From Bacilli bacterium (lineage in GTDB: Bacteria; Bacillota_I; Bacilli_A; RFN20; CAG-826), in NCBI GenBank assembly GCA_024408495.1, contig JAKSUY010000008.1:1-39515 (forward strand): a DNA stretch of 39,515 nucleotides, written 5' to 3'. The notes beneath the pieces were generated by a model. That model saw nothing but the letters and a program-made list of their open reading frames with translations. It was not told where the DNA came from and searched no databases. This document shows positions 34,515 through 37,636 of this stretch, one piece after another; position 1 is the stretch's first letter; each line of letters opens with the position of its first letter. The translations under genes were made by a program, and so were the position numbers.

Positions 34515-34932
34515 CAATGAAATGATGCGTCAAATCATCATGGATCATTATCAAAATCCACAACACAAAAAGACTCCTAAGAAAGGATATGTTTCAATTC
34601 ACTCAAAAAGTGAAAATTGTATCGATGACATTAACGTTTATTTAAAATTAGAAAAAGGAAAAGTTAAGGATTGCTTGTGGAATGGTATAGCGTGTACAAT
34701 TTCGACCGCTAGTACGGATATTATGTGCGAACTAGTGATTGATAAGACCGAGAAGGAAGCGCGTTACATCATTGAACAATATTTAAAAATGATTCATGAA
34801 GAAAAGTTTGATGAAGAAATATTAGGTGAAGCAATCGCCTTTATTAATACCAGCAAACAAGCCGCGAGAATTAAATGTGCGACTATCGGTTGTAATGCAA
34901 TTAAGGATATTATTGATGGTAAAGGAAAATAA
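34498..34932 (+). CDS. sufU: Zinc-dependent sulfurtransferase SufU
   Basis: A 144-residue partner of SufS that accepts its persulfide. Zinc ligands: Cys41 and Asp43 (NCIDD, where most have CGD), Cys66 ([10 protein letters not shown]) and Cys127 (RIKCATIG). [16 protein letters not shown] near the start is typical. AAGGAG nine bases before ATG 34498 decides the start, although the gene begins inside sufS. The SufU-type insertion between the two halves, compared with IscU, is present. The end overlaps the next gene by 17 bases. Confidence 0.93.
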
Positions 34933-36877
34933 GGATTTAACAAAATTATCATTAGAGGAACTATGGAAACTATTTCCCATTGTTTTAGTTAAACATAAAA
35001 ATCAATGGAAAGAATATTTTCTTGAAGAAAAAGAAATATTAGAGAAACTTCTTTCTTCTTTGTCTTTAGTTAGAATTGAGCATATTGGAAGCACGGCTAT
35101 TAATAATATTGTTTCTAAACCTACAATAGACATTATTGTTGAACTAAAAAACACTGATGACTTTAGTAAAGTAACAGACATTTTAAAAGCCAATAATTAT
35201 ATTTTGATGCATTTAGAAAAAGATAGACTTATTTTTAATAAAGGATATTCTACAAAAGGCTTAAAAGAAAAAGCTTTTCATATTCATATTCGAAAAGAGA
35301 ATGATCATGATGAATTATATTTTAAACAATATTTAATTAAACATCCTGAAGTGGCGAAAGAATATGAAAAACTCAAACTATCCTTAATGGAAAAATTTAA
35401 ATATAATCGTGATGCTTACACTGATAAAAAAGGAAAATTTGTAAAAAAGTATACAAAACTAGGAAAAGAAGAATTTAAAAATAATCTGATGAATTTAAAT
35501 CTTGATAATTATAAATATGGTTTTAAGGATAAAGATACCGCAGTTTTAAAAACACCTAAAGGATTAAATGAAAATATTATCCGGGAGATTTCTCGTCTTA
35601 AGCATGAACCGAAATGGATGTTAGATTTTCGTTTAAAGTCCTATGAAGCATTTAAACGTTTACCTATGCCTAGTTTTGGTCCTGATTTATCCAATTTAGA
35701 TTTCAACTCTTATACTTATTTTATTCGCCCTAGCGAAAAGGTCGAACGTAAATGGGAAGATGTTCCACAAACCATTCGCGATACGTTTAAGAAGATTGGT
35801 ATTCCAGAAGCGGAACAGAAATATTTAGCAGGTGTTACCACTCAATATGATAGCGAAGCGGTTTACCACAATATGCTTAAAGAAGTTGAAGATAAAGGCG
35901 TAATCTTTTTATCAACCGATCAAGCATTACAAATGTGTCCAGAAATAATGAAGAAATATTTTAATACCGTTGTGCCTTATACTGATAATAAATTCGCTGC
36001 GCTTAACGGTGCGGTGTGGTCAGGCGGTTCATTTATTTATGTTCCTAAAGGTGTGAAATTAGAAAAGCCACTTCAATCCTATTTTAGAATTAATAACGAA
36101 AAATCTGGTCAATTTGAAAGAACTTTAATTATTGTTGATGAAGGTGCAGATGTTCATTATATTGAAGGATGTACCGCTCCAATATACTCAAAAGATTCTT
36201 TGCACGCAGCGGTAGTAGAAATTGTAGTCTTGAAAAACGCAAAGTGCCGTTATTCAACCGTACAAAATTGGTCCACTAATATCGTTAACCTAGTTACTAA
36301 ACGCGCTAGTGTTTTTGAAAACGGAAGCATGGAATGGATTGATGGCAATATTGGTTCGCTCGTTAACATGAAATATCCAGCATGTTTATTAAAAGGTAAC
36401 GGCGCCAAAGGAACTTGTATTTCGATTGCGGTTGCTAGTAAAGGTCAACACCAAGATGCTGGTGCACGCATGATTCACCTAGCGCCTAACACTCATTCAA
36501 CTATTATTTCTAAATCAGTAGTACATGATGGAGGAGTGGCTAATTATCGAGGAACCGTTCGTCACAGTAAATTAGCGAGTAATTCTTCAAGCCATGTTGA
36601 ATGCGATACATTAATTCTTGATGACATTTCTAAATCTGATACGATTCCAAATAACGAAGTGATTAACCATACGAGTTTTATTGAACACGAAGCTACAGTT
36701 AGCAAGATTAACGAAGATCAGCTCTTCTATCTAATGAGTAAAGGGATGAGCAAAAAGGATGCGACTCAATTAATCATTATGGGATTTATTGCTCCGTTTT
36801 CACGTGAACTTCCGATGGAATATGCAGTTGAACTAAATCAGTTAATTAAACTCGATATGGATAAAAGTATCGGTTAA
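34916..36877 (+). CDS. sufB: GrpB-like nucleotidyltransferase domain fused to SufB
   Basis: ATG 34916 has AAGGA eight bases upstream and gives 653 residues. Residues 1-185 are a GrpB/UPF0157 domain: [22 protein letters not shown] (from 52) is the signature, followed by FHIHI and a basic C-terminal part. Residues 195-653 form a full-length SufB, beginning YKYGFKDKD and with [53 protein letters not shown] and a terminal [13 protein letters not shown]. The cluster-related Cys in EGCTAP is present. The junction has no stop. An internal ATG at 35489 (Met192) could start a SufB alone, but no ribosome binding site is seen there. SufB is the main Fe-S scaffold of the SUF system. Confidence 0.9.
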
Positions 36878-36927
36878 AATATTAAAATTTTTTTACAATT
36901 CTTTCTTATAATTTAATTTTTATTATG

Positions 36928-36933
36928 TATAAT
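36928..36933 (+). promoter_or_regulatory. -10 element of the DUF2188 gene
   Basis: TATAAT is followed by a short leader with AGGAG before ATG 36955. No good -35 is seen in the T-rich sequence upstream, which also contains the end of the suf operon. Confidence 0.4.
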
Positions 36934-36954
36934 AAATTTAACAGGAGAAAAAAT

Positions 36955-37338
36955 ATGGCAAGAAAAGAACACCATGTCGTCCCTAACAAAAAAGGTGGAT
37001 GGGATGTAAAAATCAACGGTGCTGGTCATCGTACTTACCATACGCGTAAGAAATCTACAGCCGTGAAAAAAGCGCGTGCTATTTCTCGTCGTCATGGTAG
37101 TGAACTAGTTGTTCACAATTCCAAAGGCAGAATTGAAGTGAAGAATTCACATCCAGTTCCAACCAAGAGACGCAAAAAAGCTAAAAAAGCAAAGCGTACC
37201 ATTAAGCGTAAGGTTAAAAAAACTAAACGCCCAGTGAAAAAGGTAAAGCGTTCAGTAAAGAAAAAAGCAAAGCGCCCAGTAAAAAAAGCAAAGCGCGTTG
37301 TTCGTAAGGCCAAAAGAAAGAATCGTCGTAGAAGATAA
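36955..37338 (+). CDS. DUF2188 protein with histone-H1-like lysine-rich tail
   Basis: The start ATG 36955 is preceded by AGGAG seven bases upstream; a longer frame from 36925 begins inside the promoter. 127 residues. Residues 5-62 are a DUF2188 domain (HHVVPNKKGGWDVKINGAG, then STAVKKARAISRRHGSELVVHNSKGRI). From residue 68 the protein is almost only Lys, Arg, Ala, Val and Pro, with units such as KKAKRPVKKAKR and KKTKRPVKKVKR, like the tail of histone H1 and of bacterial HU-H1 fusions. It probably binds DNA or RNA without sequence preference. A -10 TATAAT (36928-36933) lies just upstream. Confidence 0.8.
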   Translation: MARKEHHVVPNKKGGWDVKINGAGHRTYHTRKKSTAVKKARAISRRHGSELVVHNSKGRIEVKNSHPVPTKRRKKAKKAKRTIKRKVKKTKRPVKKVKRSVKKKAKRPVKKAKRVVRKAKRKNRRRR

Positions 37339-37348
37339 TTCTTAGCAT

Positions 37349-37585
37349 ATGCGAAAGATTCTATTAATTGCTAGCGTTGTTTTAATGTCCGTTGGCGTGA
37401 TTATATTCTTAGTAGCTGTCGGGATAGATGCTAGTAGCGGAATTAACCCTCTTCCACACATAAACTATATGTGGGCGGGGTTAGGAATCTTTTTAGCCGG
37501 GCTCGTAACTCTCATAGTTTGGTTCTATTTAAGAACTTATCTAAAACGAAAGGAAGCCGAGAAAAATAATATTAAAAGGGGCTAA
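37349..37585 (+). CDS. Small two-helix membrane protein, unknown function
   Basis: A 78-residue protein. The first helix spans about residues 4-25 (ILLIASVVLMSVGVIIFLVA). A short loop with Pro and Trp comes next, then a second helix at about 42-66. The C-terminus is basic (LKRKEAEKNNIKRG). I do not recognise a family. It lies 10 bases after the DUF2188 gene and before a strong terminator, so it is the last gene of that unit. The stop codon is part of the terminator stem. Confidence 0.6.
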   Translation: MRKILLIASVVLMSVGVIIFLVAVGIDASSGINPLPHINYMWAGLGIFLAGLVTLIVWFYLRTYLKRKEAEKNNIKRG

Positions 37586-37607: not shown

Positions 37608-37636
37608 TAAAAAAGAAAAGCACCTTTGTGGGTGCT
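37608..37636 (-). terminator. Terminator of tRNA-Gly
   Basis: On the minus strand AGCACC and GGTGCT (37636-37631 with 37624-37619) form a hairpin 10 bases past the tRNA 3' end. TTTTCTTTTTT follows to 37608. It ends the leftward tRNA transcript. Confidence 0.8.

What the first reader, a model, noticed from the sequence alone, without database searches (positions are those of the whole stretch)
36955..37338. DUF2188 domain joined to a histone-H1-like tail
A small domain of unknown function (residues 5-62) carries about 60 residues of Lys/Arg/Ala/Pro/Val repeats. Such tails bind nucleic acid in H1-like proteins of some bacteria. With rpoE delta and YbaB also encoded nearby, this could be a lineage-specific nucleoid protein. 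The coding repeats at DNA level (AAAAAAGCAAAGCG recurring) could also vary in number between strains.
Basis: partly seen in the sequence, partly recalled or inferred. Interest (0 to 1): 0.5.

Follow-up and report, generated by a model that had tools for sequence, protein, structure and literature searches.

The report
DUF2188 protein with H1-like tail
A small gene in an uncultured bacterium joins a common domain of unknown function to a 61-residue tail made almost entirely of positively charged residues, which selection keeps charged, so it is probably a DNA- or RNA-coating protein that arose in this one lineage.

Summary
Window 36955-37338 encodes 127 residues: a DUF2188 domain (6-66, PF09954, E 4e-15) and a 61-residue tail that is 62% Lys+Arg with no Asp or Glu (net +38). 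A sister species (G004, a horse-faeces Bacilli MAG) has the same gene, place and length. The domain evolves as slowly as SufB and GltX; the tail's sequence drifts about eightfold faster (dN 0.25 against 0.03). Yet its length, net charge (+38, +39) and lack of acids are kept, which neutral simulation never reproduced. So the tail is real and selected for charge.

It is very narrow: 2 of 291 distinct DUF2188 proteins read here have such a tail, both from this species pair, and two congeners lack the gene beside sufB. The domain resembles the tail-less DUF2188 type of phages, plasmids and many phyla, but has lost that type's conserved NQ and the end of DSHGND.

Best reading: a lineage-specific, H1-like polycation that coats nucleic acid, most likely DNA. 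Binding is inferred, not shown. Repeat-number variation is not seen in the two copies, and the rpoE/YbaB neighbourhood is uninformative. It is a new domain combination of a known kind of protein.

The parts
36918..36936 (+). Probable own promoter: extended -10 (TATGTATAAT, core 36928-36933) inside a 19-base stretch identical in G004
   Evidence: Both intergenic sequences printed; the surrounding bases differ. Against: the consensus scan, which needs a -35 box, does not list it.
36943..36947 (+). Ribosome-binding site AGGAG, 7 bases before the ATG
   Evidence: Sequence; AGGAG also precedes the G004 gene
36955..37338 (+). Whole gene, 127 codons plus stop
   Evidence: full-length copy in G004 (L037:3986-4369)
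36970..37152 (+). DUF2188 domain, residues 6-66, predicted strand-strand-strand-helix-strand-strand
   Evidence: PF09954 E 4.1e-15 (place); AlphaFold2 pLDDT 85
37153..37335 (+). Lys/Arg tail, residues 67-127, net +38, no acidic residue
   Evidence: Composition and selection tests
37216..37296 (+). Tandem repeat in the tail-coding DNA, period 21 (3.7 copies) or 24
   Evidence: Tandem Repeats Finder score 79; three exact 14-mers at 37183, 37261 and 37282
37349..37585 (+). Downstream 78-aa membrane protein, probably in the same transcript (terminator-like hairpin at 37619-37636); no Pfam family at E 0.001
   Evidence: a 70-aa homologue follows the gene in G004

Best explanation
The gene encodes a small cytosolic protein of histone-H1-like design that coats nucleic acid, made in one lineage of uncultured Bacilli. 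A DUF2188 domain of the mobile type became joined to a low-complexity Lys/Arg tail. The tail binds phosphate backbones by charge, without sequence preference, and probably becomes helical on contact, with its non-basic residues on one face. The globular head adds bulk, self-association or a partner contact. The most likely target is chromosomal DNA, as an accessory nucleoid protein beside HU. Shown: the domain, the tail, selection on the tail's composition, the narrow distribution, and HU in the same genome. Inferred: binding of nucleic acid (about 0.8), DNA rather than RNA or another polyanion (about 0.55 overall), helix on contact, and the role of the head.
For: The tail is 62% K+R with no D/E. 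Between G000 and G004, 19 of 61 tail residues differ, yet length (61), K+R (38, 39) and net charge (+38, +39) are kept. Neutral substitution of 54 tail bases put stops in 4849 of 5000 runs with mean net charge 16.6 (largest 29); with 19 amino-acid changes and stops barred, 0 of 2000 runs reached +39. The head has dN 0.03 against dS 1.5, like sufB and gltX. Non-basic residues recur at lag 7 in both tails (p 0.003; 0 of 2000 shuffles; not corrected for the 15 lags tried). No membrane helix was predicted in the AlphaFold2 model and none is evident in the sequence. An own promoter and a good ribosome-binding site are likely. Tails of this design bind DNA: AlgP KPAA peptides in vitro (PMC9239181, passages) and Hc2 (PMC2848022, abstract).
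Against: No binding or localisation data. A polycation would also bind RNA, ribosomes or polyphosphate. The head gave no significant match to any solved structure. HU is present in all 5 genomes searched, so compaction does not require this protein. Three congeners have no hit to it. Codon usage gives no sign of high expression (CGT/CGC 15 of 21 Arg codons against 176 of 289 in 22 window genes, p 0.49).
Confidence: 0.55

Rival explanations
1. The tail binds RNA: the protein is a ribosome-associated or RNA-chaperone factor, not a nucleoid protein.
For: Basic extensions are common in ribosomal proteins (recalled). The tail is Arg-rich as well as Lys-rich (14 and 19 Arg of 61). The charge test fits any polyanion.
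Against: The neighbours are sufB, a membrane protein, tRNA-Gly and gltX, not ribosomal genes. The gene is restricted to one species pair, unlike core ribosomal proteins. Nothing tested here excludes it.
Confidence: 0.22
2. The tail tethers the DUF2188 head or a partner to DNA, polyphosphate or granules, as proposed for AlgP and PhaF, rather than compacting DNA.
For: AlgP uses an H1-like tail to position polyphosphate granules (PMC9239181, passages). In many Bacilli relatives DUF2188 sits at the end of a membrane-anchored protein, so the head may have its own ligand.
Against: No polyphosphate or granule gene was looked for; no ligand of DUF2188 is known from the papers seen.
Confidence: 0.12
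3. A phage- or plasmid-derived DUF2188 protein kept for dealing with mobile elements, the tail holding it on DNA.
For: The nearest heads are in phages and plasmids (18 and 40 records), in early or regulatory regions where annotated. The best solved-structure match is the anti-CRISPR AcrIF5, at Z 6.0 only.
Against: The AcrIF5 match is weak (Foldseek E 0.19 with the full model, 1.2 with the head) and such Z values are common. The gene lies among housekeeping genes, with no phage gene beside it.
Confidence: 0.07
4. The tail is a neutral repeat expansion at the end of the gene, with no function.
For: There is a tandem repeat in the tail DNA, and the tail changes fast (dN 0.25).
Against: Synonymous change exceeds amino-acid change (dS 1.0). 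Length, charge and lack of acids are kept, which the neutral simulation does not reproduce. The repeat is not detected in G004 although the composition is kept.
Confidence: 0.04

Closest known systems
DUF2188 (PF09954; phrog_3220), mobile tail-less type ending ...DSHGNDPxPPKG
   Same: Head of 61 residues, 36-57% identical to phage, plasmid and genome copies; W16, R41, E50, H54, G58 and I60 kept
   Different: Near-invariant N46, Q47 and D64 are R, H and N here, and the GND after SH is missing; a 61-residue basic tail is added
Chlamydial H1-like proteins Hc1 and Hc2
   Same: Lys-rich repetitive polycation design (Hc2: pentamers in 36-residue elements; PMC2848022, abstract)
   Different: No Pfam match of the protein or its tail to a histone family; here the basic part follows a globular DUF2188 head and the period is near 7
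AlgP/PhaF-type proteins with KPAA tails
   Same: A head plus an H1-like disordered C-terminal tail; KPAA peptides bind DNA in vitro (PMC9239181, passages)
   Different: AlgP's head is helical and its tail (154 aa of KPAA repeats) is Ala/Pro-rich; this tail is 62% K+R and shorter. G079's L031 tail is nearer to the KPAA kind
HU with Lys-rich tail (HupS/HupB, actinobacteria; recalled, listing)
   Same: A globular domain plus a basic low-complexity tail on a nucleoid protein
   Different: The head here is DUF2188; this genome's HU is a separate gene of 91 aa
DUF1508/UPF0339
   Same: Possibly the same fold: phage DUF1508 models at probability 1.00 and 0.90, E 0.07 and 0.18; UPF0339 SO3888 Z 3.5, and two chains I recall as that family Z 3.5-3.7
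   Different: No sequence match at Pfam E <= 1; the scores are weak and the function is also unknown

Membership tests
DUF2188 (PF09954) | Sequence match above Pfam's gathering score over the whole domain | tested here: met
   56.1 bits against a cut-off of 22, profile positions 1-62 of 62
Mobile-type DUF2188 (informal group used here) | Conserved NQ at 46-47 and the end DSHGNDPxPPKG | tested here: not met
   R46, H47, N64, and SH followed directly by P, although the head clusters with this type (support 0.90, 18 members)
Linker histone and H1-like families (H1, Hc1, Hc2) | Sequence match to one of their Pfam models | tested here: not met
   Pfam-A scan of the protein at E <= 1 and of the tail at E <= 10 lists no histone family; HMMER's composition filter may hide weak matches
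H1-like design (what it works like, not a family) | Low-complexity basic tail without acidic residues, kept by composition rather than sequence | tested here: met
H1-like design (what it works like, not a family) | Binds DNA and associates with the nucleoid | not testable with these tools
   Needs binding and localisation experiments
AcrIF5 anti-CRISPR | Shared fold | tested here: inconclusive
   VIA-align Z 6.0, 59 residues, 15% identity; Foldseek E 0.19 (full model) and 1.2 (head; chain 7f45_P)
DUF1508/UPF0339 | Shared fold | tested here: inconclusive
   Z 3.5-3.7; phage models E 0.07 and 0.18

The most novel reading that the evidence does not exclude
DUF2188 is itself a nucleic-acid- or nucleoid-related domain that repeatedly gains basic disordered tails: the Lys/Arg tail here, an AKP-rich tail in G079, and short Ser/Arg/Lys tails in two other families of the order. 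This lineage would then show an H1-like chromatin protein being built, within one genus, from a mobile-element domain and a tail of which only the charge is conserved.
Probability: 0.2. Interest if true: 0.6.

Novelty: new variant of a known kind. Interest (0 to 1): 0.35.

Why it matters
DUF2188 is common (168 of 392 genomes in the phylum sample), yet in the papers whose passages I saw it is only a table entry. A copy joined to a tail whose conserved property is charge gives a handle on what the domain does. It is also a compact case of an H1-like bacterial protein arising within one genus: not beside sufB in two congeners, present in a sister pair, with the head frozen and the tail drifting under a charge constraint. 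If it only turns out to be one more basic nucleoid protein, the interest is modest.

Tried and rejected
Repeat-number variation: the two known copies have the same length. A donor of the tail elsewhere: the tail alone matched only G000 and G004 of 58 genomes. A profile of the two copies matched 9 of 395 genomes of the class; only this genome matched full length, G030 matched positions 3-99 and has its own Thr/Lys/Pro-rich tail, the rest matched the head (G004 is not among the matches, so it was presumably not drawn). Viral contigs: 0 relatives with P0001 and with A5; 26 with A1. tblastn against phages (18 records) and plasmids (40 records) matched the head only; BLAST masks low complexity, so that says nothing about tails, and I read the proteins of four of those records. 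tblastn matches reaching residues 78-121 in eight genome loci (L224, L225, L239, L253, L256, L258, L265, L274) looked like tails but run past stop codons in all but L258, whose tail is 25-32 residues with 22-28% K+R. Codon usage as a sign of high expression: not significant; my first count had sufB out of frame and was redone. Solved structures by sequence: only designed proteins, E 0.015 or worse. Fold search: nothing at E <= 0.001 in the PDB; an AP2 domain (Z 3.9) and RNase H (Z 3.4) stand among many unrelated rows; the one viral match at E <= 0.001 has no name. A ribosomal-protein yardstick failed because L22 was not found in this MAG.

Limits: this genome is 85% complete with 6% contamination, and only two tailed copies are known. 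The neutral simulation takes its spectrum from fourfold sites of sufB and gltX and ignores indels and alignment error. The loci were gathered by similarity, not at random. Seven low-scoring matches (frames of 61-89 aa) were not fetched, and only matches that came with loci or were fetched were read. In the tally, loci that may use another code were read with the standard code. The mobile set in the tree was fetched by similarity to this protein, so its clustering is biased towards that result.

Full report
What is there. Window 36955-37338 (+) is a 127-codon gene with AGGAG seven bases before its ATG. Residues 6-66 are DUF2188 (PF09954, E 4.1e-15; phage family phrog_3220, E 2.8e-16). Residues 67-127 are 24 Lys, 14 Arg, 8 Val, 5 Ala, 4 Pro, 3 Thr and one each of Ile, Ser and Asn, with no acidic residue. 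The tail also holds the two top-scoring tandem repeats of the window.

Where it sits. It lies between sufB upstream and a 78-aa membrane protein, tRNA-Gly and gltX downstream. G004 has the same order. In congener G001 and in family members G010 and G009, sufB is followed by a gene that I read as mnmG; in congener G002 a reversed small membrane protein follows (names by eye). G001 also has a second, 70% identical sufB match. G003 (66% complete) has no sufB match, and its gltX has another upstream neighbour. Among 224 genomes of the family and 279 of the order, only G000 and G004 match over the full length, and G001-G003 have no match. So the gene is specific to this pair in what was searched; gene loss in the congeners is not excluded. 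A 19-base stretch with an extended -10 is identical upstream of both copies while the bases around it differ, which suggests an own promoter; the consensus scan, which needs a -35 box, does not list it.

Selection on the tail. Between G000 and G004 the head has dN 0.03 and dS 1.5, similar to sufB (0.034, 1.08) and gltX (0.021, 0.86); the tail has dN 0.25 and dS 1.0. Of 61 tail residues 19 differ, yet both tails have 61 residues, no D or E, 38 and 39 K+R and net charges of +38 and +39. Neutral substitution of 54 tail bases with the spectrum of fourfold sites put stops in 4849 of 5000 runs and gave a mean net charge of 16.6 (largest 29). With 19 amino-acid changes and stops barred, the mean was 26.6, and 0 of 2000 runs reached +39. 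Basic and non-basic residues recur at lag 7 (p 0.003 here, 0 of 2000 shuffles in G004), with smaller signals at lags 4 and 11 (p 0.007-0.024) and at lag 3 (0.040, 0.053); 15 lags were tried and the values are uncorrected. This is a helix-like stripe. No tandem array reaches score 40 in G004, so composition, not the repeat, is what is kept.

How rare it is. From 355 loci I took 291 distinct DUF2188 proteins. Two have a tail of at least 30 residues with at least 35% K+R and at most 10% D+E, and both belong to the pair G000/G004. Nine more have weaker charged tails: L031 (G079, AKP-rich with Glu), L045 (G030), five short Ser/Arg/Lys tails in two other families of the order (L023, L040, L043, L050, L056), and L258 and L271 from named genomes. 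Of the 80 loci kept from 292 in the genome collection, the only strictly tailed one is G004's. None of the 31 phage, plasmid and viral-contig proteins printed has a basic tail. In Bacilli relatives a frequent design is the reverse: a membrane anchor or basic N terminus, a charged linker, then DUF2188 at the C terminus. The second DUF2188 protein of this genome (L002:652-1686) is of that kind.

Origin of the head. Its closest heads are in phages (40.9-50.8% identity in 17 of 18 records, 37.7% in the other), plasmids (36-52%, 40 records) and scattered genomes, rather than in its own family. A FastTree of 182 domains puts the pair in a clade of 18 with 15 mobile-type proteins and one from the order (support 0.90), on a stem of 0.69. 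The mobile set was fetched by similarity to this protein and the domain is short, so this is only suggestive. The near-invariant N46, Q47 and D64 are R, H and N here, and the GND of SHGND is missing; the head is itself net +13.

Fold. AlphaFold2 models the head as three strands, a helix and two strands (mean pLDDT 85), and the tail as one helix over residues 71-126 (block means 76-92); such models of charged low-complexity sequence often show a helix whether or not it forms alone (recalled). Solved structures gave nothing significant: AcrIF5 Z 6.0, UPF0339-type chains Z 3.5-3.7, an AP2 domain Z 3.9. Phage DUF1508 models match at E 0.07 and 0.18. This names no function.

Mechanism. Most likely the tail neutralises nucleic-acid phosphates without sequence preference and becomes helical on contact, and the head adds bulk, pairing or a partner. 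Comparable tails bind DNA: AlgP KPAA peptides in vitro (PMC9239181, passages) and Hc2 (PMC2848022, abstract). A jumbo-phage paper repeats that Hc1 compacts DNA and also reports effects on transcription and translation in its references (PMC12619734, passages), which fits RNA binding as well. DNA is favoured here because the known proteins of this design that I could check act on DNA; that step is inference. HU is present beside it, so it would be an accessory, not a replacement.

Literature. 'DUF2188' is in 7 papers and 'PF09954' in 1 of the library. Passages seen in three of these eight are table entries without function; the other five were seen as listings only. Searches for H1-like bacterial proteins listed none whose title or abstract start describes DUF2188 with a basic tail. 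This is a statement about those searches only.

Noticed in passing
window 34826-36877 (+): A GrpB domain (PF04229, residues 51-211, E 6e-39) and SufB (SUFBD_core, residues 420-654) lie in one 683-aa open frame; in sister G004 sufB stands alone (465 aa, L037:2523-3920). Either a GrpB-SufB fusion or a GrpB gene that lost its stop beside an internal SufB start.
   Followed up: partly
L009/L049 (G021), L062 (G047), L065 (G067); also G506:C2 and G601:C1: Three DUF2188 genes or domains next to each other in one genus (g18), one at the end of a larger protein; two genomes of another genus also have three adjacent matches.
   Followed up: no
L285-L296, L301, L303 (family f11): Many small genomes with a TGA inside the frame (mycoplasma-like code 4, my reading) carry DUF2188 proteins of about 75-95 aa near-uniformly within one genus (g61), so the domain survives genome reduction.
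   Followed up: partly
L298, L300, L304, L306-L325: In families f9 and f12 DUF2188 usually sits at the C terminus behind a membrane anchor or a basic N terminus (such as MCFFRKRR) and a long charged linker.
   Followed up: partly
L031:1321-1770 (-), G079: A different DUF2188 protein with a 60-residue AKP-rich tail (40% K+R, 13% acidic), nearer to the AlgP KPAA kind: an apparently independent gain of an H1-like tail in the same order.
   Followed up: partly
L002:50-1686 (G000:C11): The genome's second DUF2188 protein, membrane-anchored, directly follows a gene that looks by eye like a SpoIIE-type phosphatase.
   Followed up: no
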